From Gracilaria domingensis (lineage: Eukaryota; Rhodophyta; Florideophyceae; Gracilariales; Gracilariaceae), in contig VCMS01000020.1 in assembly GCA_022539475.1 (NCBI GenBank), positions 1 to 64,000 of the forward strand: a stretch of 64,000 nt of DNA. The letters are read 5' to 3'. Below, piece after piece: positions 36,056-52,497 of the stretch (positions within the stretch are counted from its first letter, which is position 1; every line of letters begins with the position of its first letter). The notes under the pieces were generated by a model. That model saw nothing but the letters and a program-made list of their open reading frames with translations. It ran no database searches and was not told where the DNA came from. The position numbers were made by a program, and so were the translations under genes.

Positions 36056-36778
36056 GGTTACACGAGCAGTCAGAGATCGATCTTGAGAGACGAAATGAAA
36101 CTGGTTGCGTACTTACAGTCGTTGTGGACGTCGGAAGAAATACAAAGGACGCACGTCAAATAGTGGTTACCTTCAATCACGTCAATGTTAGTAGCAAGAC
36201 GTAGAACAAGATGGAACATATCGTAAGCAGAACGTAGTTGAACAAATGGAACGAGTTGGAGGCTGAAAACGGGAACCCGGTAACCCAAAGCTTATTTTCT
36301 GCCGTTTACATGTCGAATAGCGCGAAAAAACGTGGTGAGGATGGGTTAGTTTAGAGCAAAGATACATAGAAGAATATGGAAGAGAACCTACGAAAAGACT
36401 GCACGGAATACATCCGTGAGATACGGATGACTCCGTCCTACTTTTTTCCGCCCTCTACTTTAAGGAACCTCCATAAAGTACAGGGAGGAAAAAAGAAGGA
36501 CGGAGGGGAGTATAACGCGAGGATGTGGATGGCACGGATCACGACGGTAAGGGAAGGTCGGACGTCGGAGGCGCGGCGGCGGCGGCGGAGGGAAGAGATT
36601 TATTTTTCTGTGCGAGATTGGACAGGTGTACAGCGTACAACGTTGCGAAACCACAGGTTTATAACCAGTGGTAGATAATACGAGAAGTACACCCTTGTGT
36701 TGAGGTCGACGTGTACCTACGTTCCTTTTTGAACGAAAGCACGTGATTTGAACTCAAAATATATTCTCCGTTCTCAGC
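36056..36778. other. Left flank of the transposase gene
   Basis: No gene is supported. A GGCGG-rich run at 36565-36590 follows a segment with AAGGAGGAAA-type purines. This would hold the left end and promoter of the element if the transposase marks its border. I could not find a terminal inverted repeat matching the right side. Confidence 0.35.
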
Positions 36779-39700
36779 ATGACGTCGATCTTGACTGTCG
36801 CTCGACCTCCTTCTCCCTTCGGACGCCCTTCCCTTGCAGTCTTTGTCGTCGTTTCTCGTTCATTTCTTCTTCCCATGGTCTACTACTGTACACATAAGAA
36901 GCGTGGGTGCCCCTTCGTTACTCGCCGAGGAGTCTTATCCCTTCAACAGCATGTCAACCATTGCCCGTTTCGTCTGAAAGCAGCGCTGGAAGACGACAAT
37001 AGCCGGCCCATTCGGAGAAGCAAGCGTCTCAAGCTTTCCGCACCCGCGCCCGCATCTTCCGAAACGGTCACTGCCCCTTGTCGCCTTCCCGAGCCTCCAG
37101 TGTCCGAGGACATCGTCGACCCCACTCCGTGCGCCCCTCCCATTCCGGACACTTCGCATTGTGTTTCTCCTTCCCCGGCTCCCGCGTCATTAGAGCGAGA
37201 ACACGGAAGCAGTTCCCGCCCAGTGCCTTCTGAGGAGGCCCTCGGTGATTTGCATATGGATTATCTCACGGTTTGTCTGGCTTCAGTAGCTTCCAACCTT
37301 GGTCATCGTGAGGCGGACGAGCTAATTGGGCTACTTCGGGACCCGCGATTCTCGCAAAAGCGATTCAACGAGACCATAACAAGTTCCAAGCGCTGTACAG
37401 AACTGAAGAAGGCCATTTTCGAACGATACGCCTCAAAGGACGGTTTCAATCGCAGAACTGTCTCGCCAGAAGGATGTAAGTTCAGCGCCACCCTCTACAC
37501 GAGAGACCCCGTTCAGACACTTGTGAAACAGCTCCAGTTGGCTAACAACGAAAACACATTCTTCCACCCTATACCTCAGACCCACTCCACGAAAATATCT
37601 CACCCCATGTCCGGCTCTCTCGCAAGAGACGCCACCTCAAAACTTAAGGAAATGGCCATGGGCTCTTTGGATAGTAGAATAGTGTGGTACTCCCAAGAAA
37701 TAAGTTACAGTGAATCTTTCGTAGGTCTTCTGCAGGTATACACCGATAAGTCTTCAACAACTCTAAAGCAAACATCGGTTACCGCCTATCCTCTTCACCT
37801 CATATTTCTCAACTTCTCCGACGAGCTTCGCCGTAAGTGTATCCGTGATGACCTCACAGTAGTGGCATACTTCCCTACCACACTGATCGAGGTTTCCGCA
37901 TCTGAAGCAGACGCAATGCCATTTGTTTCTAGCAAGTCTCTACGCGAGTCCAGGATGCAAATCCTTCAAGAATCTCTTCGTCAAGTCCTGGAGCCCATTC
38001 TAAATCTCACGCAGAAAGGTTTTCAGCTCATCGGCGAAGACAAACTAAGTCGAGTGTGCCATCCTCTGCTTGCAAGTTATTGTGCGGATATTCCTGAGGC
38101 TAAGGACATTCTGTCTATTCTTCATGGCACCAAAACGGAAAGCCCGTGTCATAGATGCAAAGCCCCTCCCTCATCTTTATGCAGTCCTATTCCCACCTCA
38201 TTCAACGGACGTTCTCAAAAGCACACAAAAAGCATCCGAAAGACATACACAGCTATCTTGCAACATGCACAAAAAGACGAGGCGGAAAGACGTCCACGTC
38301 GTGCGAGGGAGAGGAGATCTCAAGCGGATACTCTGATGCGTTCAAATTCCATATCTCTCATTCCTTCGTTCCTCGAAACTTCCGTAAGCCTTGGAATGAT
38401 CCCGGGATTGTCTCCATACAGTCTGTTCTCATTCGAACCATTACACAACTTGCATCTCGGCATCTCAAAGTTGATAAAAACGGCCACAATCGAGAGACTG
38501 CAGTCAGACACCCTGTGCACCACATTAGGAACATCTGCATCGCGTTCATTTCGAACGATACGCACCCAACTCCTCAACCATGCAAACGCAATTCTAGCTG
38601 CCATAGAACGCGATTCTCCTGCCAAAGGTTTACATATCGATTTCTCCACGCAGGAGAAAGGCAAATCTTTGAATGGTATCTTCACGAAAGACGGTCTCCG
38701 TGGAATGCTGGAGGCCAAAAACTACAAAGCACTTGACATGGTCTTTCCCTTCATAGGAGCATTCTTTGACATATGCTGTGGAGAACAGGACGTTGCCCCA
38801 ATCACAACCGTTTTCTCTCAGTACTCGGACTTGCTCTCGACCTTATTCAGATACAATCGTGACCCGTATTGGACTGAAAGCTCTCTCCTGTGTCTTAGTT
38901 CGGAGATTGAAGCCTTCAAGCGTTCCGCAACAAAGATTCTGGCGGATTTTCATCCCTCCAGACTGGGAACTCTGAAGTTTCATCTTCTCGATCATCTCGT
39001 GGACGATATTCGCCGTCTGGGAAGTATCAAGTATTACGACGCAGGCATATACGAACATGCACACCTGCTATTTAAAAGACACTACAAAAAGACGTCCAGA
39101 AGAACAGTAACGGCTGTGGAGGAGACTATTCGCTCCATTGAGCACGGACATGTAGAAAGNNNNNNNNNNNNNNNNNNNNNNNNNNNNNNNNNNNNNNNNN
39201 NNNNNNNNNNNNNNNNNNNNNNNNNNNNNNNNNNNNNNNNNNNNNNNNNNNNNNNNNNNNNNNNNNNNNNNNNNNNNNNNNNNNNNNNNNNNNNNNNNNN
39301 NNNNNNNNNNNNNNNNNNNNNNNNNNNNNNNNNNNNNNNNNNNNNNNNNNNNNNNNNNNNNNNNNNNNNNNNNNNNNNNNNNNNNNNNNNNNNNNNNNNN
39401 NNNNNNNNNNNNNNNNNNNNNNNNNNNNNNNNNNNNNNNNNNNNNNNNNNNNNNNNNNNNNNNNNNNNNNNNNNNNNNNNNNNNNNNNNNNNNNNNNNNN
39501 NNNNNNNNNNNNNNNCGATTCGTTTTCTAAGCACTTAAGCTGGGACGACCCAAATACCCCATCATCCAACGTGTCTTCGCTTCTCCAGCATTTGTCCCAG
39601 TAGAAAGCCAAAGTTTTCCACTGTATTGGTAAGCGAGAAGATTCAGAGACTTGGGTTGCCCAGGTAGTCGCTCTGATTCGAATATCTCTCCTTGATTCTG

Positions 39701-40056
39701 CACTTACCGCACCAGAGGTGGCATTCGTCCGGTATTTCGAGGTTTTACCCCCCGCAACAAACATCGACCACATATTGAAATGCATATCTTTACGGTGGGC
39801 TACAAACGATGAAAAGAACCACACTCTTCCGTTCCCTCGTCATTCCAAAGCGGAGACTATCGTAGAGTTAACTCCTTGGTACGGGATGGTTCCGGCTTCT
39901 GCACTACAGGGAACTGTCCATGTTGTTCGATCAAACTACCCTGCTCCACCTTTTTGTCCTCCACTTCAATGGTTTCAACACCGATTCTACATCAATCGAT
40001 TCTATCATGATTCAGATGAAGGACCAACTGAGCACGTTGATCTTGTACAGCCTTAA
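36779..40056 (+). pseudogene. Plavaka/CACTA-like transposase with assembly gap and one stop
   Basis: The likely start is MVYYCTHKKRGCPF (36875). The N-terminus has a Cys/His finger (C-x6-C, then H-x4-C, to about residue 60), as in fungal Plavaka proteins. The middle has SDELRRKCIRDDLTVVAYFP and a C-x2-C pair (SPCHRCKAPPSSLC) before EPLHNLHLGISKLI. That last motif resembles the D-x-LH-x3-LG motif of Plavaka/TNP2 transposases. The frame enters the gap 39160-39515. Beyond it a frame runs to 40056 (ending EHVDLVQP) with a single TAG at 39601. Family assignment is by motif only, and gap length prevents a frame check. Confidence 0.55.
39160..39515. other. Assembly gap (356 N)
   Basis: A run of N inside the transposase gene. 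Its true length is unknown, so no claim about the reading frame across it is possible. Confidence 1.
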
Positions 40057-40075
40057 ACATTAAGGGCTCCATCCT

Positions 40076-41767
40076 CTACATGTTCACCTTGTGGTGCCTT
40101 TTCTTGTGATCCTGTGTTATTCCGAAATCGTTCATGTCCATTTCCTTGAACTCCATATCCCCTTCCTCGCATTCACCAACGAAGCAATCGCTAATAGACC
40201 CCAATCTTCGGCTCACACTGTCAATAAAAAATTGTTCTTTCACAGTGAGGTAAAGTCTTCCGTTCGACGGCATTCGATATCCAAATGTAGCCTCTCTCAT
40301 GTCATTACCAAGAACCTTAGTCCAATCTTCCGTTGTCGTTCCAAAATTATGAAACTCGCTGGAATTGGTCCTCAAGACATGTTGCCTAACATCCCCCAGA
40401 ACATTCTTTAAACACAGAGGTAGCAGTTCGGCAAACTTCTTTGTAAACAGTTTCTGTCTCTGGCCACCCCTTGACACATCCGTACTTAGAAGGCTCACAA
40501 CCGTCAACACCCAAGCGTCCAAACGTGCGAGCAACAGTATTGTGCCATCTAAAAAGGTGCCCGTATCCTTGTCTTCCACATCATACCCAATAAACTCCTT
40601 CAGCACTTGTACCCCGACACGGTTTCGGAAGAACAAGTCTTGATCTTCCGTCGGCATATCCTCGACATTGTCCGCATTGGAGTACTTTAGACGAACAAAT
40701 GGGGCTTTTCTCCACCATGAAGTGTTCGGTACACCATTTTCGTCAAGACGCAGTATGTTCTCCTGCGCTTCCTTCAACTGCATTGTGAGTTCGTCAGCAT
40801 TCTCTTCTACCAGCTTTGTTCTTCTCCAAATCAGATCGTACCCCAGGAGCAGAAATAGTTTATCCCTCGTATTTCTCTTACGAACGCCCACGACGTCACT
40901 CATGGTCTGCCGCATTCTCTGCCTAAGGCACATATCTGCACAAAGTTCCAGTATACACCTGTCGGTAAGAGATGCTTTTCTAATACCTTCCCAGCTCAAC
41001 TCCTTCAACTCGCTTTCAACCATTTTCTTCAGCAAAGCATCTGGCCCCCCCTCTACCGACGGTGTGAACATGCCAAAACTGCCCAAGAGCTCCACGGGGT
41101 TTTTAGGAACCATGTATGAACCACCTTCCTCCGGCTCAATAAGCCCTTCCCCACTCTCAGTTGCGTCTTCCACCTTCTCGGCACGGTTACCCCAATTTCG
41201 GGTGAGCGACTCACCTTCGAGCCATAGCTCACTTGTTTCTCTCCTTGCCCACGTCAGCATGTTGTGATACACTGCTCGAGCAACCCCTCGAAACTCGTCG
41301 CACACCTCAATTTTATGCTTCTTTCGACCTGTCTGCCCAGGTTCACCAGCACGTGTACTCCTATCTCCCTCCTGTTTCAGTGCCCCTCTTAGCCCTTCAA
41401 TGACTAGATCCTTCTCTTCAAGCCTCTTTTTCAAAGCCGTACTCTGCTCTTGGGCGACCTTCACTAGAATTCCCCGAACCATCAAGTCCTCTTGTAGCGT
41501 CTTAACCTTTTCTTTCAAGCAATTCAGTTCATTTAAAAGATCAGGTCTGTTCATAGAGCTTGAATTCACACCAGTTTGGATATCTTCCGTTATTTCCCTA
41601 GCTTCTTCGGCGACAGGCCCCGGTAATGCCGCAGGATTCGGTGTTATTTCGTTATCGGAACTATCCTCATGTGCCATAGCCTTAGCACGAGAGGCTGCAG
41701 GCGTTCTGTGTCCACCCTTGGCACGGCTCCGAGCTCCAACTCCCGTGTATGTCCTCCTCCATGGCAT
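40076..41767 (-). CDS. Coiled-coil protein of the modification cluster, unknown function
   Basis: A 563-aa intact ORF ending only 20 bp from the convergent transposase frame. The N-terminus is basic and low-complexity (1-60). A coiled coil spans about 70-135 (heptads in LNELNCLKEKVKTLQEDL). The rest (about 150-560) looks globular, with conserved-looking blocks such as LLGYDLIWRRTKLVEENADE and ATFGYRMPSNGRLYLTVKEQ. I know no family. The layout coiled coil plus globular domain suggests a structural or scaffold partner in a complex. Confidence 0.65.
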   Translation of the reverse strand: MPWRRTYTGVGARSRAKGGHRTPAASRAKAMAHEDSSDNEITPNPAALPGPVAEEAREITEDIQTGVNSSSMNRPDLLNELNCLKEKVKTLQEDLMVRGILVKVAQEQSTALKKRLEEKDLVIEGLRGALKQEGDRSTRAGEPGQTGRKKHKIEVCDEFRGVARAVYHNMLTWARRETSELWLEGESLTRNWGNRAEKVEDATESGEGLIEPEEGGSYMVPKNPVELLGSFGMFTPSVEGGPDALLKKMVESELKELSWEGIRKASLTDRCILELCADMCLRQRMRQTMSDVVGVRKRNTRDKLFLLLGYDLIWRRTKLVEENADELTMQLKEAQENILRLDENGVPNTSWWRKAPFVRLKYSNADNVEDMPTEDQDLFFRNRVGVQVLKEFIGYDVEDKDTGTFLDGTILLLARLDAWVLTVVSLLSTDVSRGGQRQKLFTKKFAELLPLCLKNVLGDVRQHVLRTNSSEFHNFGTTTEDWTKVLGNDMREATFGYRMPSNGRLYLTVKEQFFIDSVSRRLGSISDCFVGECEEGDMEFKEMDMNDFGITQDHKKRHHKVNM

Positions 41768-41962
41768 GGTATATCAGATGAATTGGGCCTCGTACGAGCT
41801 GCAACGGCCCCCGTTCTGGAAAGAGGGGAAGGTCGAAAAGTAACTCGTCTATCAGTTGTCTCTCGATTTCTTATTGTTTTCTCCCTTGTCCGGACCCATT
41901 GCGAGGCATGATACGATTCATAGCGGCCCCAGTTCTAGAAGAGAGGGATGGACGTGACGATC

Positions 41963-42445
41963 TTAATATACTAGGCTCTCACGACTTCTCGTCATTGTCC
42001 CTTGTTGTCCAGATCCACTGGGCGGCGTAACCCGCGCCCCAGTAGCTCCGGTCTTCGATATCGGCCGGGGACATGAAGGTTTTGGTGTCATACGAACCTC
42101 TTCGGTTCCAGTTGTCATGCCCTCCTGTCCTGACCCGCTGGGCCGAGTTACCTCATCTTCTTGAGGAGCAGAGACAGATGCACGATTTGCATTATCGGCA
42201 GTTGACGGCACGACATCGTTCGCTGATCCACGAATTCTTGACGCAATCCCGGAAGACGCTCCGCTGCGAGATGGGCGAGAGAGTCCTGTAGAAGGACGCC
42301 CACTGACTCTCTCCTTCGTCGAGGACGACTTCCGTTTAGGAAGTGCGGTGCTTGTAGCCTGATTCGTATCATCCGATGCTCTTCTCTTCTTCTGTCCACT
42401 CTTGTTCCGCTGCGTACTATTTCGCTTTCTCGGCGTTATACCCAT
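41963..42445 (-). CDS. Basic, Ser/Thr-rich low-complexity protein
   Basis: A 160-aa ORF. The first 45 residues are strongly basic with nuclear-localisation-like clusters (RKRNSTQRNKSGQKKRR). Later it has a repeated module: TRPSGSGQEGMTTGTEE and TPPSGSGQQGTMTRSRE. The same repeat continues in DNA beyond the stop, towards 41800, so the protein may once have been longer or be an N-terminal exon of the 40076-41767 gene. No fold can be assigned. Confidence 0.4.
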   Translation of the reverse strand: MGITPRKRNSTQRNKSGQKKRRASDDTNQATSTALPKRKSSSTKERVSGRPSTGLSRPSRSGASSGIASRIRGSANDVVPSTADNANRASVSAPQEDEVTRPSGSGQEGMTTGTEEVRMTPKPSCPRPISKTGATGARVTPPSGSGQQGTMTRSRESLVY

Positions 42446-42690
42446 GTGTGGAGATAAACAGGGTAATGAAACGAAATTGTTGGGGAGGGGGGAGGGGGTG
42501 GGGGGGGTGCATGGTTCAGATATTCCGGGAGACTCCGCAGTTCCTGCTTTTTAGGAATTTGAGGTGCCCAATGGGTCGCAAATATCGCCGTTACAGATGA
42601 AGAGCTCCAGTGTACATGTACAACAACGCGTATTGCAGGCAGCTGCAACACTCACAAGCATATTTACTTTCTATTCGCTACTGAACTCAT

Positions 42691-43452
42691 CTATTGCTCC
42701 AATGTCAGAGCCCAGTCCCAGGCGTACTGCTCTCCGTAGTCGAAATACAACTCTTCGCCCCTCTCAATATCTCTTACTGCTCTACAACGAAGTAGAGCAT
42801 AGTTAGAAAGGTCTGACTTGAACTGTATCACGGACTTCGCTTCCACCACCTGCACATTGGCACTTCGAGTCCTGTTTGACCGGGGCTCCGATAAATCGGG
42901 ATCCCCGGCATGATATCCGGCGTCGTTAATGTAGCCCCCGATACAAAAAGGCGCCGGGACAATGTAGACTTCGCTCTCCTTTCTATCCTGAGCCTGTCCT
43001 GGTCTGTTCCTCAGGTGCAGAAACTCCGTACCAGTCACAGTGACCATCATAGAAAACAACTTGTACCGCACTGGAGTTGCTCCGAGACAGCCACTTCCAT
43101 ACGTTAAGTGTCTTTCCTTCCGGTTCGTCAGATCCGTGTATACCAAAGTTCCATAGAAATGACAGATAGTTTCCCCAGCCAATATCTTATGTTCCGTGAA
43201 CACCCCCATACCAGCACGGGGATGTCGAATCTTAGAAGATGCTATATGTAAGCGATAGCGATTGGCTTCAACAGTCAACAGCATATGCATATCCATAAGA
43301 TTCAGAGCTCCTCGGTACTTCCCTCCCAAAGATCTACAGTACGCTCTCCACACTTGTCGACAAAGTCCCAGTCCTTCCAGTATCTTCCTAGGAACTGAGT
43401 AATATGTCCAGGCATCACTTGGTACTGGGGGTAACCAAATGGAGCCTCCCAT
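42691..43452 (-). CDS. SET-domain protein (putative lysine methyltransferase)
   Basis: SET motifs in order: GMGVFTEHKILAGETICHFY (SAM-binding turn, about residue 80), GGYINDAGY with downstream RSANVQV (in place of the usual NHxCxPN, about 165-195), and RAVRDIERGEELYFDYGEQY (about 220-240), with the GEEL and catalytic Tyr of SET proteins. There is no post-SET Cys cluster. It would methylate a lysine on a histone or other protein. Its start overlaps the 3' end of the methyltransferase ORF by 38 nt in another frame, so it may be the C-terminal half of a fusion read through a frameshift or an unseen intron. Confidence 0.7.
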   Translation of the reverse strand: MGGSIWLPPVPSDAWTYYSVPRKILEGLGLCRQVWRAYCRSLGGKYRGALNLMDMHMLLTVEANRYRLHIASSKIRHPRAGMGVFTEHKILAGETICHFYGTLVYTDLTNRKERHLTYGSGCLGATPVRYKLFSMMVTVTGTEFLHLRNRPGQAQDRKESEVYIVPAPFCIGGYINDAGYHAGDPDLSEPRSNRTRSANVQVVEAKSVIQFKSDLSNYALLRCRAVRDIERGEELYFDYGEQYAWDWALTLEQ

Positions 43453-44344
43453 TCAAGCCGACCTCGGTCCCGATGTGGAACCCGTTCATAGGTCGTTGAA
43501 GCCGCATCCACCACCTCCTGTTCAACCAGGATGTCATTCTTCCCCCCCGAATAACTTCGGCCATAAGAGTCGTTAGATGGTGCTTCGCATGGCTGAAACA
43601 TGGCCTATTCTTCTCGCACCCCAAGAACTTCCTATGCTTTGTCAGCGATAGGCACGCCATACCCGTAGAAAAAGTTCCCGCGAACATGTCCATGACAAGA
43701 TCACCCGGTCTTGTGAAGCGACATATCAACTCCTTCATCAACTCCCTCGACTTCTGCTCCGGTCTTATGTACTGCCCACCTGGTACTGAACTACCTGGCT
43801 CATGTACCTTCCATGTCAACCACTCCCCCGCCCTCGGTTTGGGCACCCGGTCAATTACATTCCTGTTAGCCGGGAAAGTGGAAGGAATGAAATTGTTCTC
43901 CTCAAATGGAGTAAGACTGGCTTCCTCCGATGGTCGCAATCCACGCTTCACCCCATGAACGGCGTACTCCGTTACGGGCTGTATCCCAAACTTCCGTGGA
44001 TTCCCTCCAACATTACTGCGATCCCGGATGAACACCAGTGGATTCGCATCCACTTTAAACGAAGGCATGAGTTCTGGTTTACCTTCGCTTCCAGCTTCAT
44101 CTTTCGTACTCGCCGTTTCCGAAAGTATCCTGTGCCACACATGAAACTGTGCCATGGCACAGAATATAATGAAGTGCCCACCTGACCGAAGCGCGGAACT
44201 TATTAAGTCAGCCGTACGGATCATGTCTTCCTCACTGAAGACATCGTGACCACTATTCCGTTTGTTCCTCTTCCTTCGAGTGTTAAAGGGAGGGTCTGTT
44301 AGGACAAGCTGTGCCTCACCCCATAAAATCTCACTCTGATTCAC
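43415..44344 (-). CDS. DNA N4-cytosine/N6-adenine methyltransferase, beta-class motif order
   Basis: Catalytic motif IV LVLTDPPFNT (about residue 13-22) comes first. The SAM-binding motif I GDLVMDMFAGTFSTGMACLS (about 217-236) comes near the C-terminus and is followed by FLGCEKN. That IV-to-I order with DPPF is the arrangement of prokaryotic and phage beta-class amino-methyltransferases (Pfam N6_N4_Mtase type). It is unlike MT-A70 or DNMT enzymes. The upstream ORF (44331-45089) ends 14 nt into this one, in another frame, with sequence that fits an N-terminal extension (VAYNCDMKDL). It probably modifies amino groups of DNA bases in the nucleus. Cytosine or adenine cannot be decided here. Confidence 0.8.
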   Translation of the reverse strand: MNQSEILWGEAQLVLTDPPFNTRRKRNKRNSGHDVFSEEDMIRTADLISSALRSGGHFIIFCAMAQFHVWHRILSETASTKDEAGSEGKPELMPSFKVDANPLVFIRDRSNVGGNPRKFGIQPVTEYAVHGVKRGLRPSEEASLTPFEENNFIPSTFPANRNVIDRVPKPRAGEWLTWKVHEPGSSVPGGQYIRPEQKSRELMKELICRFTRPGDLVMDMFAGTFSTGMACLSLTKHRKFLGCEKNRPCFSHAKHHLTTLMAEVIRGGRMTSWLNRRWWMRLQRPMNGFHIGTEVGLNGRLHLVTPSTK

Positions 44345-45089
44345 AAACGTTTCGTGTGTGCCTCAGGTCCTTCATGTCACAGTTGTACGCTACAAAGTGT
44401 GACTTTCTCATCCCCTTCCACACCTTGTCCATATTCATTCGAAGGAGACTGGATATCCCCTTCATGGGCGGCTCAATACCAGTCTTTTGGATGTTGTAAC
44501 CAGCAACCCGAGATTCATGCTCCGCAAGATTCACCGGCTTCTCGAACTCGTCGCTATCGGAGCTCACGAGGTTCATATACTCTCGACGAGGTGGGGGTGG
44601 GGCAGACTTGGTCGAAGAAGGTTCGGCATTACCGGAAGTTTTAGGGGTTTTCGTCAGTTCAATATCAGGTTTCGCGTGAATGCCGACATGGAACCCTGCC
44701 GCATGACGCATATCCTGTATCGGTTTCCATAGCAACTCCGAAAACTTCTGAAATCGAGCAGGCAACTCACCGGAGTCAGAGCTAGATACGGTATCCATCC
44801 GTATCTCCGAAAACTCTATCCAGTTCCTCATCTGATCAACCCGTAAGCTATAGAGGCTATCGTGGGTGCATATGGTTTCGAGGTCTGTCAAAAACTCCTT
44901 AGCCAGTATTCGCAGGTTTGTATCGCATTCATCACTCAAGGTCTCCACCGATCCACTAGTACTGCTCTGTGGCACATCCTTTGTGTTGAATCGAGTACTC
45001 TGGCTCGGCGGGGCATAACCAGACTCCCGTGTCTCTAGCGCTGTATACTTCAACGTCTGCATATTCATGTAAATGTATGGTTTCACCAT
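44331..45089 (-). CDS. Upstream ORF, probable N-terminal part of the methyltransferase
   Basis: 252 aa. Ser/Asp/Pro-rich linkers surround a helical part (about 50-130, TNLRILAKEFLTDLETI). Its last residues (MRKSHFVAYNCDMKDLRHTR) look like the strand and turn that come before DPPF in beta-class methyltransferases. The frame ends in GTGAATCAGAGTGAG, where the next ORF starts. It also overlaps the preceding ORF by 7 nt (ATGGTGA). Either these are separate overlapping genes or one long gene whose frames are split by indels. Confidence 0.5.
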   Translation of the reverse strand: MVKPYIYMNMQTLKYTALETRESGYAPPSQSTRFNTKDVPQSSTSGSVETLSDECDTNLRILAKEFLTDLETICTHDSLYSLRVDQMRNWIEFSEIRMDTVSSSDSGELPARFQKFSELLWKPIQDMRHAAGFHVGIHAKPDIELTKTPKTSGNAEPSSTKSAPPPPRREYMNLVSSDSDEFEKPVNLAEHESRVAGYNIQKTGIEPPMKGISSLLRMNMDKVWKGMRKSHFVAYNCDMKDLRHTRNVCESE

Positions 45090-45823
45090 GTGCTGAACGT
45101 TCGTGTATCCAAGATGAGCCGCAAAACAACTCCATGCCCATACGACCTCACTGATACGAATCCCAGTCGATCACAGTTGTCTTTGGAGAACGACGTAAAA
45201 GTGGGTATGTACACAGCTGGTGCATGGTTCACTTTTCGTTTCTTTTTCGGTTGTTTCTTCTTCATCATTCGGATGTTGTCGTTCTCTCCCATTATGTGGC
45301 CGAGGTATGATAAGTATATAACGACCTCAAATGGGTTCACAGCTGTTGGTGGGATGAACACTGTCGTCTTCAGAACCTGCTTTCTCCTGGTCATGAAATA
45401 ACCAACCAGGCATCGCACCGGTAGGTATATACCCATATCCATAGAGAGAAGGAAAAAATCGCGCAGTCTCTGGTCCTCATCCCCGTCCTTCTTGTCAAGA
45501 AGCTTCGTTACAAGATATCGCTGTTCCACAGGTTTGTTATTCACAACACTCTTTCGCAGCTGTTGCAGTGTCAAGTTCTGCAGGTTCTTGGAGTTAGTGG
45601 CCTCCTCAAACATCTTCCTTGCCTCCGGAATATCCTTATAGTTCTCGGCGCAGAACTCTATTAACCCTCTAAACCCCACGTCCCGTGGCCGATCAGGGCC
45701 TCCATCGCTGTTTGCCAAAGCATCGCGAAGAACCAAGAAAAGTCTGACATATGCATGGAACGCCGGAGGCGGAGCACTCATGTCGATAGGATGTATCTCC
45801 TCTCCAACATCGGTGGAATCCAT
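45083..45823 (-). CDS. First ORF of the leftward cluster, unknown function
   Basis: 246 aa, start ATG 13 bp from the inverted promoter arm. Mostly helical, with no signal peptide. A Lys-rich run (MMKKKQPKKKRKVNH, about residue 185-199) contains PKKKRKV, a classical nuclear-localisation sequence. Blocks such as DVGFRGLIEFCAENYKDIPE and DFFLLSMDMGIYLPVRCLVG look globular. I recognise no family. Position suggests it is the first product of the cluster. Confidence 0.55.
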   Translation of the reverse strand: MDSTDVGEEIHPIDMSAPPPAFHAYVRLFLVLRDALANSDGGPDRPRDVGFRGLIEFCAENYKDIPEARKMFEEATNSKNLQNLTLQQLRKSVVNNKPVEQRYLVTKLLDKKDGDEDQRLRDFFLLSMDMGIYLPVRCLVGYFMTRRKQVLKTTVFIPPTAVNPFEVVIYLSYLGHIMGENDNIRMMKKKQPKKKRKVNHAPAVYIPTFTSFSKDNCDRLGFVSVRSYGHGVVLRLILDTRTFSTW

Positions 45824-45835
45824 CGCTTCAGCGCA

Positions 45836-45928
45836 AACAACGGAGGCGAGCCTTTAAATGGCGACTTACGCTGGGCACCCCCGCTTTCGGCAGCTCCTCC
45901 CAGCGCACTGCCAGTCTCGTCCGTGTCC
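45836..45928 (-). promoter_or_regulatory. Left 93-bp inverted promoter arm
   Basis: Reverse complement of 47143-47235 with about two differences. It contains a TTTAAA box (45853) and, on the minus strand, a GTAAGT donor-like word (45865-45870). It lies directly upstream of the leftward cluster, so both clusters start from the same sequence. Confidence 0.8.
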
Positions 45929-45937
45929 GTGTCCGCT

Positions 45938-45979
45938 CGGAGCGATAGCGTCGCGTGTCGGAGCGATAGCGTCGCGTGT
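45938..45979. repeat. Two tandem 21-bp units
   Basis: CGGAGCGATAGCGTCGCGTGT occurs twice head to tail between the left arm and the large palindrome. It is absent on the right side, so it breaks the symmetry. Confidence 0.8.
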
Positions 45980-46096
45980 CGGCCACGTCGCGATTCGGAG
46001 CTATTGCAACGGTCCCGTATTGTGCTAAAAGTCGCGGATCAAGTGGGTGTGAAGCGCTAGTTTTCTCTAGTTTGATATATGTGTACGGCGTGTGCA

Positions 46097-46935
46097 GCGA
46101 AATCACTGCCGGAAGTGCCGGGAGGAGTGTTTTGGGAGGTCTCCGGAAGGCGCCGGAATGTGACCAGAACGTGCCCGCGGGCGGGGGGTCCGGTCGTGTT
46201 AGGGTAGGTACCCTAACACGACCGGACCCCCCCGCCCGCGGGCATAAAATCGCACATTTTTCAAAAAATCGTCCAAAATGTGCCCGCGGGCGGGGGGTCC
46301 AGTCGTGTTAGGGTACCTACCCTAACACGACCGGACCCCCCCGCCCGCGGGCACGTTTTCGACGATTTTTTGGCACCCTCCGGAGACCTCCCAAAACACT
46401 CCTCCCGGCACTTCTTGTACCCACTGCGTCACCTCAGTGAACCATCCCGGAAATTAGGGAGTGTCTGGAGGGTGGAGAAGACGGGATGGTCACCTCAGTG
46501 CACCATCCCGGAAATTAGGGAGTGTCTGGAGGGTTAAGATGACGGGATGGTGCACTAAGGTGACGCAGTGGGTACAGGAAGTGCCGGGAGGAGTGTTTTG
46601 GGAGGTCTCCGGAGGGTGCCAGAATGTGGCCAGAACGTGCCCGCGGGCGGGGGGGTCGGTCGTGTTAGGGTAGTACCCAACACGACCGCCCCGGCACGCG
46701 ATTATGCCGCCGGTCGTGTTAGGTACCCTAACACGACCGACCCCCCCGCCCGCGGGCACGTTTTGGGCGATTTTTTGAAAAATGTGCGATTTTATGCCCG
46801 CGGGCGGGGGGGTCCGGTCGTGTTAGGGTACCTACCCTAACACGACCGACCCCCCCCGCCCGCGGGCATAAAATCGCAACATTCCGGTGCCTTCCCGGGA
46901 CCTCCCAAAACACGCCGCCGCGCAGTGATTTCGCT
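46097..46935. repeat. Nested palindrome array between divergent clusters
   Basis: Four GC-rich palindromes: 46172-46244, 46281-46353, 46638-46758 (with extra DNA in its middle) and 46795-46868. Each has arms from TGCCCGCGGGCGGGG to GTGTTAGGGTA around a 2-base centre, which sets TTAGGGTA against TACCCTAA. Spacers between pairs (46245-46280, 46759-46794) are reverse complements. GGGAGGAGTGTTTTGGGAGG occurs four times in alternating orientation, near 46119, 46387, 46585 and 46900. The ends AGCGAAATCACTG and CAGTGATTTCGCT close the outer arms. Confidence 0.9.
46430..46551. repeat. Two 61-bp tandem units at the centre of the palindrome
   Basis: CACCTCAGTG, ACCATCCCGGAAATTAGGGA, GTGTCTGGAGGG and CGGGATGGT occur in each of 46430-46490 and 46491-46551. 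Each unit begins ACCATCCC and ends GGGATGGT and so can fold. Flanks GTACCCACTGCGTCACC and its complement close the centre. Confidence 0.85.
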
Positions 46936-47142
46936 ACACCCGGCCGCCGGTACGTTGGCGCCGCTGTCCACGTGTATTGGCGGGAGTAGGCTGTACATGG
47001 AAGTGAATGAGTGTACTCTTGACTACTATGCAAAGCATTTGAAGAGCATGATTAGAGAACGCGACCATTGCTCGCGTGAGTCATCATTGCGCGAACTCCA
47101 CGACTCTAAAGCGTACAATCAGCGTGCGAGCGGCCACGGACA

Positions 47143-47235
47143 GGACACGGACGAGACTGGCAGTGCGCTGGGAGGAGCTGCCGAAAGCGGGGGTGCCCAG
47201 CGTAAGTCGCCTTTTAAAGGCTCGCCTCCGTTGTT
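47143..47235 (+). promoter_or_regulatory. Right 93-bp inverted promoter arm
   Basis: Mirror of 45836-45928. TTTTAAA lies near 47213. GTAAGT at 47202 with CAATAG at 47280-47285 could frame a short 5'UTR intron just before the ParB-fold ATG. Confidence 0.8.
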
Positions 47236-47294
47236 GTATCGTCCAGAGCGAGCGTATTGTTGATATACACCTTTCACTGCAATAGCTGTTCAAC

Positions 47295-49319
47295 ATGAAG
47301 CCAACTCGTGTTCGAAAGCGTACGCAAAGCGTGACTCCTCGCACTCGGCGGAGCACTCGATTATTGCAAGGTGGAATGCGGGTTTCTCTGCAGATGGATA
47401 TTGAGGATGAAGGAAAGGTGATAGTCGGGGAAGCGTTGTTGCATGGAATTGGAAGTGTTCTACGCCGCGAGTTGCACGGGAAGCAATTGGACCCAGGTCT
47501 TGTGGTGGTTCATAATATTCTCATCAGTCGAAGCGGTCAGACGTTCTACCCTTACCGGGCGGAGGGCCTGGATCTTCCACAATATATCCAGGATCTCCGG
47601 ACGGCCGCTCCTTGGGATGAGAAAATGATGGAACCGGTGGCAGCCAGCATTCCGGCGTCGAAGCGAGGAACGGTGAGCGCTATGAGTGAGGTGATGACGC
47701 CGACAAGCCGCACGGAGCCAATTCGAAGTTCATCAACACCGAGAGGTAGCGCATCAGTAGCACCTCCGCGGGCAGGTCCGTCGTCTATTACGAAGCGGTC
47801 TATGGAGACGAGAGCATCCCCAGCTACGAAGCGGACAGGTCAAACAAAGTCTACCTCCGCTACGAAGCCCACTGCGTCGAAAAGGGCTTCTCCTGCGATG
47901 AATCAGACCGTCGACACAAGGGGAACTTCTGCGTCGAAACAGACGGTTCAGCAGGGGACGGCTGTGCAAGAGGAGGAAGATGAGATCATGAAAGGTCCCC
48001 TTCCAGACGCGGATGCGCAATCCGCGCAAGGAGCTGGTCCATCTGTACCCCAAACTGCACCAGAAACTGCGGAGCAGCAGGACGATGACGTTGTGCTTCT
48101 GTCCGCAAGAATGGCACGTTCAAGTGTTTCTGGCGAGCGGTCTGGAACACAAGGGACACCTACTCGGAGCAAGACGTACAGACGAATTCGTCAGAAGGTA
48201 CCAAAGGTGAACCTCAATCAGTACCGGATGGTTGTTGTTACTGTTGACATCACTCTGGTGGACACTCCGCCCAATTTACTCCGTGGAGTAAGTAAACGCC
48301 ACGTTGAAGCCCTTGTGAAGAGTATGGAGGAGCGGGGGATATTGCAGTCGATGGGTTCTCCAGTGGTGGCCTTACAAGATGCTACTACGGGAGAGAGGGA
48401 TACTGACAAGGGACGCCTAACGAAGAAGTGCTTCATTGTAGATGGTTTGCATCGTCTGAAAGCTATACAATATTTGGCAGCGACTGGTGCACCGAAGTGG
48501 AAGCGATTAGCCAAGTTTTGGCGTTGCAATCTGCTGATACGAAGAGATGGGAGGCCCATTGGGATGAAGGAATTGTTATGTGTTGCTTCGTACCTCAATG
48601 AGTCGACGAGTACCATGCGAAGGATGATGTTTGCAGACAAGATACACTCTATAGTTAGTGTGGTCGCCATTCTAATTGAAGATGTTGAGGGGGTGACGCC
48701 GGCAGACGTGGATCCTGCAGAAGTGACAGAAGTGTTGAAGGAGAGCCAACTGATTGGGACTGTGCAAGAGCGTCAGTACCTGAGATATGCCAATGTCGCC
48801 CTGCAACTCATGTCTCGTGAGGGAATGCTGGCCCATTTCGAGGATATATGTGAGACTGTGAGTGACATAGGTCTCACACATCTGTCCCATACTCCGCTAT
48901 ATGTTTTGGATGCCGAGGAGTTTTCCTTCATTCTTGATTGTCTTCAGATGTTTCTATTGAAGGGCAAGTCGACGAAGACAAAGCAATGGAAAAGCTTTGA
49001 GGAGGTTCGAGGTTTCTTTTATGATAGAGCAGTGTCTCTGTTCCGCGCGGCTAGAGCAGTGAGGAATGAACTGAACGAGGAAGAGTCCATGGAAGTGTTC
49101 CTGAAACGCGAAGTCAGTCTTTCTGCTCCATCGAATGAAGATGACGTTGAAGACCCAGACAACAACGCAGCTGTGTATCAGTTCCTTTTGGGACAAGTTG
49201 TGAACTTCAACACTTTGCCGCGTGTTCGGAGCAGGACGAACTCAATTAGAACTGCCACGACTTCCGTTCAGAATCGATTGCGGACGATGCTCAAGGTAAT
49301 TCCGCCCCCGCACCAGTGA
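47295..49319 (+). CDS. ParB-fold (ParB/Srx-like) protein with long N-terminal region
   Basis: 674 aa. The N-terminus is basic. Residues about 110-300 are Ser/Thr/Lys-rich with repeated ATKRT/SATKPT/SASKQT segments. From about 304 a ParB-type domain follows: VVVTVDITLVD, then LVKSMEERGILQ, then FIVDGLHRLKAIQYL, equivalent to the GxxRxxA box of ParB. ParB-fold proteins bind DNA, act as CTP-dependent clamps or as nucleases, and often sit beside DNA methyltransferases in phages and mobile elements. The C-terminal 220 residues are helical and unknown. The ORF end overlaps an open frame leading towards the next gene. Confidence 0.65.
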   Translation: MKPTRVRKRTQSVTPRTRRSTRLLQGGMRVSLQMDIEDEGKVIVGEALLHGIGSVLRRELHGKQLDPGLVVVHNILISRSGQTFYPYRAEGLDLPQYIQDLRTAAPWDEKMMEPVAASIPASKRGTVSAMSEVMTPTSRTEPIRSSSTPRGSASVAPPRAGPSSITKRSMETRASPATKRTGQTKSTSATKPTASKRASPAMNQTVDTRGTSASKQTVQQGTAVQEEEDEIMKGPLPDADAQSAQGAGPSVPQTAPETAEQQDDDVVLLSARMARSSVSGERSGTQGTPTRSKTYRRIRQKVPKVNLNQYRMVVVTVDITLVDTPPNLLRGVSKRHVEALVKSMEERGILQSMGSPVVALQDATTGERDTDKGRLTKKCFIVDGLHRLKAIQYLAATGAPKWKRLAKFWRCNLLIRRDGRPIGMKELLCVASYLNESTSTMRRMMFADKIHSIVSVVAILIEDVEGVTPADVDPAEVTEVLKESQLIGTVQERQYLRYANVALQLMSREGMLAHFEDICETVSDIGLTHLSHTPLYVLDAEEFSFILDCLQMFLLKGKSTKTKQWKSFEEVRGFFYDRAVSLFRAARAVRNELNEEESMEVFLKREVSLSAPSNEDDVEDPDNNAAVYQFLLGQVVNFNTLPRVRSRTNSIRTATTSVQNRLRTMLKVIPPPHQ

Positions 49320-49534
49320 AGCAGTCCGTGACAAGAGGAGGACTCCCGCTGCTGCTGCTGCAACATCTGCAGTGAAGAAGGGGAGCCGCGAAGAAGTGCA
49401 CGAGAACGGGCGCAGGTGAGTTATAGGGAAATGAACACGGCCGAAATCGAGGTGCCATAGAAGTTCTGGATAGCTCTGAAGAAGAACAGCGGGCTCCGCC
49501 GAGGAAGAAACGGAGAAAGACTTTCACACAACAG

Positions 49535-51208
49535 ATGAGATCTACTCTGAACAGCATGACACCGGATGACCTGATGTCTCAACTAAATGAACATGTGCTG
49601 AGAGGAAGGTCGATGAAGGTTCAGTTCGTGGCATTGGGAGAGGGAGCGAATGCAGAGAACGCAGGCAGTTCTGCATTTGTGGATGACGATGAGCTTCTTT
49701 CTGTGACAGTTCCACGGGTTGTCACCGTCGAGAAAGATGCTGCGCCAGACGATCAGCAAGAGACAGGTGGGGGGTCATTTGATGACGAGTTACCTACAGC
49801 TCTTCCGGAATCTGAGGAGCACGGACTTGTTCGAGGTGACCCATATGATGGCCCACTGAACCCATCATGGTGCGGGTATGCCAGGCTGAGACCGCAGGAA
49901 TGGCAAGGGAAGAACGTAATTGAGCACAAGGACCCCTGGCTCAGAGTCATTCACTTGCCGAAGGGACATAGGTCGGAGCTGCTAAGTGTCTCGAATCTCA
50001 GAGATGTACACCATCTTGTCTTTTGGCACGCTGCAAGGGCTGAACATCGCCTACGGGCGGAGACATTTGGTATGCAGTATCCTCGTACTCGACCGACAGG
50101 TATGGATGATGAAGAGGTGCTGTGGGTTGCTGCGAAGGAGCATGACGAATTTGGGCAAATGTTCTTCGCCCGAATGCAAGCTGAGCTAAGGCAGAATGGA
50201 TATTGCGTGCTTGATGGCTTTGCGACGGATAATGGTGTCCCTAAATGGGAGGAGTTGGAAGAAGTTCGGGAGTTCGGAGATGTGTCGGGGAAGTTGGTGG
50301 ACTTCTTCGAGAATGAGTATGGAGCGATGCCGGATATACGGAAAGGAGAGGAACAGAAGTCGTTTGTTCAAATAATCAACGATGATGAAGGATGGAAGGA
50401 CGGTAGCGATGGACCATTTGAGGGGAGAGTGATGTCGACACGTTGGGGTACGGTGGAGAAGCCGGAGGATAATGAGGAGCTCAGGTGGGTTGTAAGGTCG
50501 CGTGCTTTACTTGATGTTCGAATGGGTACAATTGCTGCGGCTTTGGGACTATGGGACAATGAAAGGGAAGCTGTGAAGATGTACACTCCGAAAACTGGTG
50601 GTCGATTTCTGGGGACGACGAGAAAGTGCAAGCGCCAGACGCTGCACACCGACTTCAGTGGTCTGGTTACGAAGGAAACAATGAATACTGGCAACCCCGG
50701 ATACTTTGTAATGGCCTCTGGGAAAGAGGGCTTTCCTCTCTGGGTGAGCGCTGGAAGCCATCAACTGGTGGGGATGAACAACCAACAGTTGCGAGTGATG
50801 TCGGAGGTGTATCCAGCGAAGAAGATAATCATCCCACCGTACTCTGTATTCGTGGGCCGTGGTGATGTGACACATGCTGGAGCAAGTGGGAAGGACAAGG
50901 TGGATAGGCCCGAGTCTATGGATTTGCTGGTTAGATACCACATGTACATGGTACCAGAGGGCTACGCACTACCTGATGCTGTTCATCGGGTGCGGGATTT
51001 CCGACCCACGTTTGTCAATGGTGACGAGGAGGAGGAGGCGGAGGATGAACTGTTGTCCGATAAGGAGGGTGGGGCGGTTGACATGGACGAAGACCAAGTG
51101 GTCGTGGAGATTGGTGTGGAAGCGGACGCCGGTAGAACCGAAGTGCTCGAGAGTAGTAGTGATGACGATTTGCCAATAATGAGGCTGCGAGCGCCTCGAA
51201 GTGGATGA
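49535..51208 (+). CDS. 2-oxoglutarate/Fe(II)-dioxygenase-like protein
   Basis: 557 aa from this ATG, but the frame is open back to 49427 and the upstream residues (VLDSSEEEQRAPPRKKRRK) look real, including a nuclear-localisation-like stretch. The core has HTDFSG (His371, Asp373), GSHQLVG, then GRGDVTHAGAS (His447) and RYHMYMVP. The H-x-D...H facial triad and a later Arg fit the 2OG-Fe(II) oxygenase double-stranded beta-helix. The C-terminus is acidic. Such enzymes in mobile elements include TET/JBP base oxidases; whether this one acts on DNA, RNA or protein is open. Spacing 73 residues between Asp and distal His is within the family range. Confidence 0.6.
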   Translation: MRSTLNSMTPDDLMSQLNEHVLRGRSMKVQFVALGEGANAENAGSSAFVDDDELLSVTVPRVVTVEKDAAPDDQQETGGGSFDDELPTALPESEEHGLVRGDPYDGPLNPSWCGYARLRPQEWQGKNVIEHKDPWLRVIHLPKGHRSELLSVSNLRDVHHLVFWHAARAEHRLRAETFGMQYPRTRPTGMDDEEVLWVAAKEHDEFGQMFFARMQAELRQNGYCVLDGFATDNGVPKWEELEEVREFGDVSGKLVDFFENEYGAMPDIRKGEEQKSFVQIINDDEGWKDGSDGPFEGRVMSTRWGTVEKPEDNEELRWVVRSRALLDVRMGTIAAALGLWDNEREAVKMYTPKTGGRFLGTTRKCKRQTLHTDFSGLVTKETMNTGNPGYFVMASGKEGFPLWVSAGSHQLVGMNNQQLRVMSEVYPAKKIIIPPYSVFVGRGDVTHAGASGKDKVDRPESMDLLVRYHMYMVPEGYALPDAVHRVRDFRPTFVNGDEEEEAEDELLSDKEGGAVDMDEDQVVVEIGVEADAGRTEVLESSSDDDLPIMRLRAPRSG

Positions 51209-51520
51209 GAATGAGATGATTAGTAAATTATGTGTGTCTTGCGAGTATTAAGAGTAGTATACTATTACAAGGCTATACATATGAACATAGAAAAGGTGCG
51301 GCAGGCTGGTAATTGAACAAATGTCAAACGTCTTTGGTCCAGTTGCGTCTAATTGCAACATGCCAAATGCTCGGTATCGTTAACATCATTGGTGGCACCA
51401 GTCAATTCGCAATTGAACATGTAGCGTCCTAACATTCTGAAACTGCACTTAAGGTTGCTTTTAAGAGAAGTATAACTGAGAAGTCTATACAGTTCCTGTC
51501 TATGCGGTACTTGTGGCAGT
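51209..51520. other. Right flank of the modification cluster
   Basis: No gene. AT-richer than the cluster, with a probable 3'UTR of the dioxygenase-like gene. No terminal repeat matching 36.0-36.8 kb was found by eye. Confidence 0.3.
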
Positions 51521-52381
51521 ATGGTGACTGTATCAGGAAAAATGGCAGAGGAACAGAGAGACTTGGCGGAAATTTCACCAAATACCTTGTCTAAGTTCAT
51601 ATATGCCAATGGTTACGGTATATTAAGTTCCGTTGATGGAACGTTGAGAAGAGAAGGAGAGTCAATTCCAGAAGAAGTTGTGAAGTGTATGAAGTTCATT
51701 GACGAACGTGTTGGTTTCGGACTTGTCACAGGGGGTGATGTGGGCGACGTGGAGGGGAAAATGGAAGGACTCGGAGACTATAAGTTTGGTGTCTCGGCGA
51801 ATCATGGAGCTTTCCTGCGTTTCTCTGACGAGAGGGAAATTAAGGGTGCATTCAATGATCACACCCTTGACCACACTGTTGACGGACTACTGTTCCTGGC
51901 AAGGGATTTGAATAGGAGGCATGGTATTGTGAATGATGATGACAAGGGGTTCGTGGAGACCAGAAGTGATAGTGGCCTTCCCAATTTCGTGTACAACAAA
52001 CTGTGGCAGTGGAAAGAAGAAGTGGATTCTGCTATTGGGGACCTGTTGCAGAAGATGGATGCGTTTGTTATCTATCCCGGCGATAAAAGTTGCGAAATTG
52101 TGGACAAGCGATACACAAAAGGAAGCGGAGGAGAAAATCTTGTGGATAATGAACCGAGATTTATTGATACGGATGACGTCGTGACGTTCGGAAGTGCTTT
52201 GAGCGACGGGCCTTTGCATGAGGTAGGCGTGTACGGCGTTCACGTCAAAGAAGATTGTATCCCGCGTGGAGTACACAACCTGTTCGAAAGCGTGGAGGAT
52301 GTACATTCGACAATTATGTTGGTGGCTCTGTTGTACGGCTACGAGGAAAAGCAGCACGATAAAAACCACCATGATTCATAA
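51521..52381 (+). CDS. HAD-superfamily protein lacking the catalytic nucleophile
   Basis: The likely start is MAEEQRDLAEI (51542). The fold is that of Cof/sucrose-phosphatase-like HAD hydrolases and aligns end to end with the paralogue at 52498-53380. Motif I reads LSSVDGTL, where the paralogue has ISDVDGTL: the first, nucleophilic Asp is Ser. TGR is TGG, and the motif IV GNASND is GSALSD. So the ORF is whole but three active-site elements are changed. A regulatory or binding role, or early decay, would both fit. Confidence 0.7.
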   Translation: MVTVSGKMAEEQRDLAEISPNTLSKFIYANGYGILSSVDGTLRREGESIPEEVVKCMKFIDERVGFGLVTGGDVGDVEGKMEGLGDYKFGVSANHGAFLRFSDEREIKGAFNDHTLDHTVDGLLFLARDLNRRHGIVNDDDKGFVETRSDSGLPNFVYNKLWQWKEEVDSAIGDLLQKMDAFVIYPGDKSCEIVDKRYTKGSGGENLVDNEPRFIDTDDVVTFGSALSDGPLHEVGVYGVHVKEDCIPRGVHNLFESVEDVHSTIMLVALLYGYEEKQHDKNHHDS

Positions 52382-52497
52382 AAGGGTATTGAGATATATA
52401 CGACACTTTTATTACTGAGATCTCATATCATAGCTAAGTATTAAGGCATCGTAGCACTTGAAACAAATTCCAAGAGCATTTCTAAACCATTGACACT

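What the first reader, a model, noticed from the sequence alone, without database searches (positions are those of the whole stretch)
36779..51208. Candidate large mobile element carrying a DNA methyltransferase, SET protein, ParB-fold protein and 2OG-oxygenase
Seen: next to a Plavaka/CACTA-like transposase lie a beta-class N4/N6 DNA methyltransferase (DPPF then FAGT), a SET domain, a ParB-fold domain and an H-x-D...H oxygenase-like protein, plus three or four unknown proteins, all radiating from one palindromic core. Known: TET/JBP oxidases travel with KDZ transposons in fungi, and ParB-fold and beta-class methyltransferases sit together in phages. Inference: this is one cassette that writes (and maybe oxidises) DNA marks and methylates proteins to protect or silence itself. 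I know of no described element with this set.
Basis: partly seen in the sequence, partly recalled or inferred. Interest (0 to 1): 0.88.

Follow-up and report, generated by a model that had tools for sequence, protein, structure and literature searches.

The report
Seaweed jumping gene with epigenetic enzymes
A very abundant DNA transposon in the red seaweed Gracilaria domingensis carries its own DNA methyltransferase fused to a histone-methyltransferase-like domain, and a ParB-fold protein fused to a probable oxygenase, so it may mark and control its own chromatin.

Summary
The host is the red alga Gracilaria domingensis, not a fungus. The element spans 34726-57565 (22.8 kb), not 36779-51208. 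It has short inverted ends (CGTCTGT..ACAGACG); the genome holds 558 left and 575 right ends, reversed controls 0. Target duplications are 2 bp: 17 of 37 end pairs match against 1/16 expected; 9 of 10 in short copies but only 4 of 17 in long ones.
In intact copies the "separate" proteins are two fusions: a 1,045-aa DNA amino-methyltransferase + SET protein and a 1,305-aa ParB-fold + putative 2OG-oxygenase protein, transcribed apart from a palindromic core; four wrong-orientation controls gave 0. The ParB fold is supported by structure. The oxygenase rests on motifs; its model failed.
The 5mC-eraser idea is weakened: no C5-methyltransferase gene was found and copies show no CpG decay.
I favour self-marking of the element's chromatin; that step is inference. 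My literature searches found no description.

The parts
34726..34741 (+). left terminal inverted repeat, CGTCTGTCTCTTGCAG
   Evidence: common left border of eight other copies; 558 genome places of the terminal 28-mer with up to 2 mismatches, reversed control 0
36752..39538 (+). Plavaka-type transposase (stop-to-stop frame). The 150-aa frame 39604-40056 (+) is probably its C-terminus: many other copies have one frame of 1,100 aa. Part of the frame is withheld (N).
   Evidence: PF18759 2.1e-19; 60 scored matches at 98-100% identity, most in a 1,100-aa frame
40076..41773 (-). unknown 565-aa protein, coiled-coil-like N-terminal part by eye
   Evidence: open frame; no Pfam hit; DNA present in 8 of the 10 other stretches compared
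42691..45823 (-). MTase-SET protein: about 460-aa N-terminal part, N4/N6 amino-methyltransferase, SET domain. One 1,045-aa frame in L071 and L072; broken into four frame pieces in the window copy.
   Evidence: 126 scored genome matches of the MTase part
46111..46924 (.). palindromic core between the two divergent genes: four GTCGTGTTAGGGTA / TACCCTAACACGAC pairs (three with a 2-nt, one with a 51-nt spacer) within nested inverted repeats of up to 137 nt; the promoter-side sequences 45850-45928 and 47143-47221 are 99% complementary to each other
47295..51208 (+). ParB-fold + putative 2OG-oxygenase protein: one 1,305-aa frame in L073 and L074; frame break near 49307 in the window copy
   Evidence: 66 and 74 scored genome matches of the two parts
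51476..52381 (+). HAD-type hydrolase, cargo
   Evidence: PF08282 5.1e-5
52601..53500 (-). second HAD-type hydrolase (HAD-IIB/Cof-like), cargo
   Evidence: PF08282 1.2e-11; TIGR00099 7.4e-10, below its curated cut-off
53930..54937 (-). 335-aa protein; looks like a nucleotide-binding reductase by eye only
   Evidence: open frame; no Pfam or NCBIfam hit
56069..57097 (+). 342-aa frame, coiled-coil-like by eye
   Evidence: open frame; no significant Pfam hit
57550..57565 (-). right terminal inverted repeat, TTGCAGAACACAAACG here; ..ACACAGACG in 34 of the 36 other end pairs read
   Evidence: 575 genome places of a terminal 26-mer with up to 2 mismatches, reversed control 0

Best explanation
Shown: this is one copy of a high-copy DNA transposon family with a Plavaka-type transposase, short inverted ends and 2-bp target duplications, in the red alga Gracilaria domingensis. 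The full form (about 22.8 kb) carries two fusion proteins, MTase-SET and ParB-2OG, read apart from a palindromic core, plus HAD-hydrolase and unknown genes; shorter forms share the same ends. Inferred mechanism: the ParB-fold protein (in ParB, Noc and KorB the fold is followed by a helix-turn-helix that binds palindromes; recalled) binds the palindromes of the core and loads onto element DNA. The MTase-SET protein then writes an amino-methyl mark on the DNA (6mA more likely than 4mC, because the motif is DPPF/DPPY) and a lysine-methyl mark on nearby nucleosomes in one polypeptide. The oxygenase joined to ParB edits or removes one of these marks. Together they set the expression state and copy number of the element, without using 5mC. 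Confidence: element identity about 0.9; this mechanism about 0.35.
For: Common ends and duplications. Order and orientation: ParB with divergent MTase 28 of 66 ParB rows (29 have any MTase row within 16 kb), ParB with 2OG 22 of 66 (23 with any), Plavaka with convergent MTase 11 of 60 (13 with any); the hit lists are capped, so these are lower bounds; four wrong-orientation controls, for MTase-ParB and ParB-2OG, gave 0; none was run for Plavaka. Intact fusions. A distant protein of another source, P0001, keeps the MTase-SET architecture at 41% identity over 97%; P0005 and P0006 keep ParB-2OG at 35-36% over a third of the length. P0002 has SET, a weakly MTase-like region without DPPF (by eye) and an N-terminal DGEHR stretch that looks ParB-like by eye, a hint that the two proteins act together. 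ParB fold, with a helical region at 446-510 that matches HTH proteins weakly. GTCGTGTTAGGGTA palindromes confined to the core within the window. No C5-MTase gene found, no CpG decay.
Against: No activity, expression or mark was measured. The oxygenase is not confirmed by fold or family. Within-family pN/pS is scattered around 1 (0.36 to 1.8), so most copies seem to decay neutrally. 13 of 17 end pairs of 20 kb or more lack a matching duplication, and the two flanks of the window copy belong to different repeats, so full-length copies may be wrongly phased in the assembly. Two of the copies compared, C49 and C28b, stop matching at 51411-51417, just after the 2OG frame. The palindromes may be only promoter or replication structures.
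Confidence: 0.45

Rival explanations
1. Anti-silencing by a TET/JBP-like eraser: the oxygenase removes 5mC from the element, as proposed for TET-bearing Plavaka and other transposons of fungi.
For: Plavaka elements with TET/JBP genes exist in Agaricomycetes (PMC12730594; abstract, passages and sections 21 and 26 read). H-x-D, H and R residues are conserved. A review reports cytosine methylation in Gracilaria dura and Gracilariopsis lemaneiformis (PMC9861306, passages read).
Against: No PF00145 match at E up to 0.001 in the genome, while the control rings in 10 of 14 genomes. C to T rate at CpG (3.74 per 1000) is not above CA, CC, CT (3.72, 4.93, 3.54); CpG observed/expected in the element is 0.93, against 1.13 to the left and 0.92 to the right of it. 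No TET/JBP hit in Pfam.
Confidence: 0.12
2. Coupling of transposition to replication: the amino-methyltransferase marks the ends or promoter, and transient hemimethylation gates the transposase, like Dam control of IS10; SET and oxygenase are accessory.
For: beta-class amino-MTase similar to bacterial and phage enzymes; copy number in the hundreds of ends. The IS10 comparison is recalled.
Against: Does not explain the SET fusion or the ParB-oxygenase fusion; recognition site unknown.
Confidence: 0.15
3. Extrachromosomal stage: ParB-fold protein and palindromes form a partition or maintenance system of a circular intermediate, with the methyltransferase protecting it.
For: ParB/Noc/KorB-like fold; palindromes near the centre.
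Against: No ParA-like ATPase among the Pfam hits of the frames scanned; the sites lie at a divergent promoter, which suits an operator better. No circular form was looked for.
Confidence: 0.1
4. The 22.8-kb unit is partly an assembly product: two or more shorter elements with the same ends were merged, so the cassette is real but not one transposition unit.
For: TSD match falls with length: 9 of 10 under 12.5 kb, 4 of 10 at 12.5-19.5 kb, 4 of 17 at 20 kb or more, the window copy being one of the 4. The window copy has flanks of two different repeats. C49 and C28b stop matching after the 2OG frame.
Against: Colinear parts of the same inside recur in nine other contigs. Wrong phasing of flanks explains the missing TSDs without changing the inside. 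C6:458664-480015 (21.35 kb) has a TC duplication and contains the 2OG frame.
Confidence: 0.1

Closest known systems
Plavaka DNA transposons of fungi (CMCT clade), including TET-bearing Plavaka (Kojima 2025, PMC12730594)
   Same: transposase family PF18759; 2-bp TSD; a dioxygenase-like cargo gene
   Different: red-algal host; termini CGTCTGT..ACAGACG instead of TGT..ACA or CATCA..TGATG; carries MTase-SET and ParB fusion; oxygenase gives no TET/JBP hit in Pfam
Bdelloid rotifer N4CMT (Rodriguez 2022, PMC8885841; abstract and section 6 read)
   Same: permuted beta-class N6_N4_Mtase (PF01555) in a eukaryote without Dnmt1/Dnmt3, joined to a chromatin domain
   Different: host gene that silences transposons, SPPY motif, chromodomain reader; here DPPF/DPPY, a SET writer, and the gene lies on the transposon itself
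HarbingerS transposons with a SET domain (title seen in the reference list of PMC12730594 only)
   Same: DNA transposon carrying a SET-domain protein
   Different: Harbinger transposase; no report seen of an amino-MTase fusion
Bacterial ParB/Noc/KorB and phage ParB-methyltransferase modules (phage link recalled, not from a call)
   Same: ParB/Srx fold followed by a helical region; palindromic sites beside the gene
   Different: eukaryotic, joined to a putative oxygenase; CTP binding and DNA binding untested

Membership tests
Plavaka DNA transposon | transposase matching PF18759 above its cut-off | tested here: met
   70.3 bits against cut-off 26.3
Plavaka DNA transposon | 2-bp (PlavakaA) or 2-3-bp (PlavakaB) target site duplication | tested here: met
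   17 of 37 end pairs share the 2 bp outside the TIR, chance 1/16; 9 of 10 for copies under 12.5 kb, but 4 of 17 at 20 kb or more
Plavaka DNA transposon | termini TGT..ACA (A) or CATCA..TGATG (B) | tested here: not met
   termini are CGTCTGT..ACAGACG; TGT/ACA lie 4 bp inside. So a Plavaka-like lineage of its own, not PlavakaA or B as described.
Plavaka DNA transposon | C(2)C and H(3-4)H motifs between second D and last E | tested here: inconclusive
   CHRC at residue 466; HNLH at 565 is H(2)H, another spaced histidine pair stands at 744; catalytic acids not mapped
TET/JBP dioxygenase | match to TET/JBP or other 2OG family profile | tested here: inconclusive
   no Pfam hit at E up to 10 for the full protein or the three members of the 2OG-region alignment, no meaningful PDB sequence hit; PE-type TET/JBP of fungi were recognised by fold comparison (PMC12730594), and the model here failed
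2OG-Fe(II) dioxygenase | H-x-D...H metal triad and basic 2OG residue | tested here: inconclusive
   H290-x-D292, H366, R386 of A5 invariant in 3 of 3 proteins; fold not shown
beta-class amino DNA methyltransferase | PF01555 with catalytic (D/S)PP(Y/F) before the AdoMet motif | tested here: met
   PF01555 at 506-743, DPPF at 511, FAGT at 715; PDB relatives DpnA and CcrM
SET-domain lysine methyltransferase | PF00856 above cut-off | tested here: met
   32 bits against 22.4; KMT5A and EZH2 chains in the PDB search at E 3e-4 to 3e-3; activity and substrate not tested
ParB/sulfiredoxin fold superfamily | ParB/Srx fold | tested here: met
ParB/sulfiredoxin fold superfamily | CTP binding and parS-like DNA binding | not testable with these tools
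   needs biochemistry
Bdelloid N4CMT | SPPY motif and chromodomain | tested here: not met
   DPPF in this element, DPPY in P0001; Pfam shows SET and no chromodomain in either protein
HarbingerS | Harbinger transposase | tested here: not met
   the transposase frame matches Plavaka only

The most novel reading that the evidence does not exclude
A eukaryotic transposon that carries a complete epigenetic system of its own, independent of 5mC: a ParB-type loader that spreads from parS-like palindromes at its centre, a DNA writer and a histone writer in one protein, and an oxygenase editor fused to the loader. It would be a self-propagating chromatin state encoded by a mobile element, spread over hundreds of copies in a red alga.
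Probability: 0.22. Interest if true: 0.93.

Novelty: new variant of a known kind. Interest (0 to 1): 0.76.

Why it matters
Transposons that carry TET/JBP or SET genes are in print (PMC12730594), and C5-methyltransferase-bearing retrotransposons are recalled, so the kind is known. A bacterial-type amino-methyltransferase fused to SET, paired with a ParB-fold/oxygenase fusion, on a transposon of a red alga in which no C5-methyltransferase gene was found, is new in everything I searched. It offers a natural case of DNA and histone writing in one protein, a test of 6mA or 4mC as a eukaryotic mark, and a eukaryotic use of the ParB fold. The family may fill about a tenth of the genome (rough: 558 left ends times a mean of 15.0 kb over 47 paired copies).

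Tried and rejected
Fungal host: rejected. PF00504 light-harvesting matches occur at 11 places, on contigs such as C2, C11, C22, C61 and C68 that also carry the element, and contig C22 has 1,013,300 bases, the length given for the NCBI Gracilaria domingensis contig of P0004.

CG as target-site duplication: six early pairs looked palindromic around CG; with 37 pairs the duplication is the 2 bp outside CG, so CG belongs to the TIR.

Empty site of the window copy: the joined-flank query found no listed place that holds both flanks. Three of four relatives of the left flank fetched read CTACTTAATGG (the fourth lacks the search motif); five of five relatives of the right flank read TTCACGCTCGAG. The two flanks are from different repeats, so the CT/CT of the window copy is probably not a true duplication; without it the count is 16 of 36.

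Fold of the oxygenase: pLDDT 31, not searched further. The third protein search, with the profile, gave only the two known Gracilaria proteins. No relatives in IMG/VR viral contigs in two scans. Phage tblastn: weak MTase matches only (8 records, 29-44% identity, best 6e-8); for the ParB and 2OG parts only chance-level rows at E 5-9. Rfam: none at gathering score. What the 10-14 kb copies contain could not be read.

Literature: ten searches of the open-access library and parts of four papers: PMC12730594 (abstract, passages, sections 21 and 26), PMC8885841 (abstract, section 6), PMC10388701 and PMC9861306 (passages). No listing or text that I saw describes this element; the G. domingensis genome paper (J Phycol 2022) and its repeat annotation were not read.
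Full report
Host and setting. The window is G000:C20:1-64000 of a 77.9-Mb assembly in 680 contigs. ParB-2OG matches two NCBI proteins of Gracilaria domingensis at 89 and 92% identity. The contig length given for one of them, P0004, is 1,013,300, equal to that of contig C22 here. The published size is 78 Mb (PMC10388701, passages). Eleven PF00504 matches confirm a photosynthetic genome.

Ends. Of ten other stretches compared, seven begin to match at window 34723-34728 and an eighth (C89) has the same left end by motif; the other two start inside the element. The ends read CGTCTGTCTCTTGCAG and ..TTGCAGAACACA(G/A)ACG, which places the element at 34726-57565. Genome counts with up to 2 mismatches are 558 left and 575 right ends; reversed patterns give 0. 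Of 92 exact left ends on contigs C1-C64 among the first 100 rows listed, 50 have a right end within 45 kb; 3 have another left end in between and were dropped. The 47 left span 6.4-26.7 kb, with clusters at 10.1-10.9 kb (13), 13.0-14.5 kb (9) and 22.2-23.5 kb (8). I read 37 end pairs: 32 of these 47 and five from other contigs. 17 of 37 share the 2 bp next to the TIR (p 1.6e-11 at chance 1/16): 9 of 10 below 12.5 kb, 4 of 10 at 12.5-19.5 kb, 4 of 17 at 20 kb or more. I read the fall with length as wrong flank phasing by the assembler, since long near-identical repeats are hard to span; recombination between copies is the alternative. The window copy, counted among the 4, shows CT/CT, yet its flanks belong to different repeats.

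Gene order. The hit tables are capped (126 MTase, 66 ParB, 74 2OG, 60 Plavaka rows). Within them, ParB and MTase lie divergent in 28 of 66 ParB rows, ParB and 2OG in tandem in 22 of 66, Plavaka and MTase convergent in 11 of 60, Plavaka with ParB and with 2OG in 6 of 60 each. Rows with any such neighbour within 16 kb are 29, 23, 13, 6 and 6, so up to 1, 1 and 2 neighbours do not fit. Four wrong-orientation controls (two for MTase-ParB, two for ParB-2OG) are 0; none was run for Plavaka. By my count of the table, 91 of 126 MTase matches hold no stop and 12 rows have the 1,055-aa stop-to-stop frame, 3 of them with stops inside. Two copies compared, C49 and C28b, stop matching the window at 51411-51417.

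Proteins. L071 and L072 hold one frame of 1,045 aa; in L071 PF01555 lies at 506-743 and PF00856 at 873-1032. L073 and L074 hold one frame of 1,305 aa. The window copy has the first in four frame pieces and the second in two. P0001 keeps the MTase-SET architecture at 41% identity; P0002 has SET, a weak and probably inactive MTase-like region, and a ParB-like DGEHR stretch by eye. P0005 and P0006 keep ParB-2OG. The DPPF/DPPY motif points to N6-adenine rather than N4-cytosine; PMC8885841 (section 6) assigns SPPY to most bacterial N4C and DPPY to N6A enzymes. The ParB model has mean pLDDT 49, with 174 residues at 70-90; Foldseek and VIA put Noc, ParB, KorB and sulfiredoxin first. The 2OG model failed, so the oxygenase rests on H-x-D, H and R among 108 columns invariant in three distant proteins.

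Core. Between the genes lie four GTCGTGTTAGGGTA inverted pairs, three with a 2-nt and one with a 51-nt spacer, within larger inverted repeats; that word occurs nowhere else in the window. The number of arms varies among the stretches read: 0 in C502 and 0-1 in C28a, which do not hold the whole core here, up to 5 per strand in C591. This is the obvious candidate for a ParB-type operator, by inference.

5mC. PF00145 has no match in the genome, while the control rings in 10 of 14 genomes. Substitutions among ten copies and the window show no CpG excess: 3.74 per 1000 at CG against 3.72, 4.93 and 3.54 at CA, CC and CT; CpG observed/expected is 0.93 in the element, 1.13 left and 0.92 right of it. 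This argues against a 5mC eraser. Against my reading: a review cites cytosine methylation in Gracilaria dura and Gracilariopsis lemaneiformis (PMC9861306), and the PF00145 result is one six-frame search of a draft.

Selection. Polarised differences among ten copies and the window give pN/pS from 0.36 (SET) to 1.8 (MTase), on 8-64 synonymous events per frame; the last two frames (53930-54937, 56069-57097) gave no data. Copies seem mostly to decay freely. The conserved catalytic residues in P0001 are the argument for long-term function.

Mechanism. See Best explanation. The shown steps are the element, the fusions, the ParB fold and the palindromes; the inferred steps are DNA binding, marks, editing and effect on the element. 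The nearest conceptual relative is the bdelloid N4CMT system, in which a bacterial amino-MTase is tied to a chromatin reader in a host without Dnmt1 or Dnmt3 (PMC8885841); here the tie is to a histone-type writer and the transposon owns the gene.

Novelty. Transposons with epigenetic genes are a known kind; this combination, host and scale are new in the searches made. I therefore file it as a new variant of a known kind.

Noticed in passing
window 14001-16000: Stretch of 77% G+C; by eye the reading contains a HELGHLL motif like a site-2-type membrane protease host gene. The tRNA-Arg call at 15765 lies in this stretch and may be false: Rfam reports no tRNA in the window.
   Followed up: partly
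window 23073-23133: Perfect 61-base palindrome with arms of 30 and one centre base, beginning CAAGCCGTCCGGGATTGCTGC.
   Followed up: no
P0003, P0004 (NCBI, Gracilaria domingensis): Two copies of the ParB-2OG protein are annotated in NCBI as 'cell-wall-anchored protein SasA' and 'mediator of RNA polymerase II transcription subunit 15-like'; both lack the stretch with the oxygenase motifs (for P0004; P0003 read by eye), probably wrong introns.
   Followed up: partly
genome G000, end pairs of 10-14 kb: Size clusters of shorter copies with the same ends, many with matching TSDs; their content could not be read.
   Followed up: partly
window 51476-53500: Two HAD-type hydrolase genes in convergent order lie inside the element; role unknown.
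   Followed up: no
window 34752-34796 and 35681-36026: Tandem repeats inside the left end (periods 21, 73 and 64), possible transposase binding sites.
   Followed up: no
window 30127-34725 and 57566-58049: The window copy is flanked on the left by LTR-retrotransposon frames (by eye; a 72% relative at 3170-3571) and on the right by a frame with a weak chromodomain hit (0.0011, below cut-off) whose relatives lie elsewhere in the genome.
   Followed up: partly
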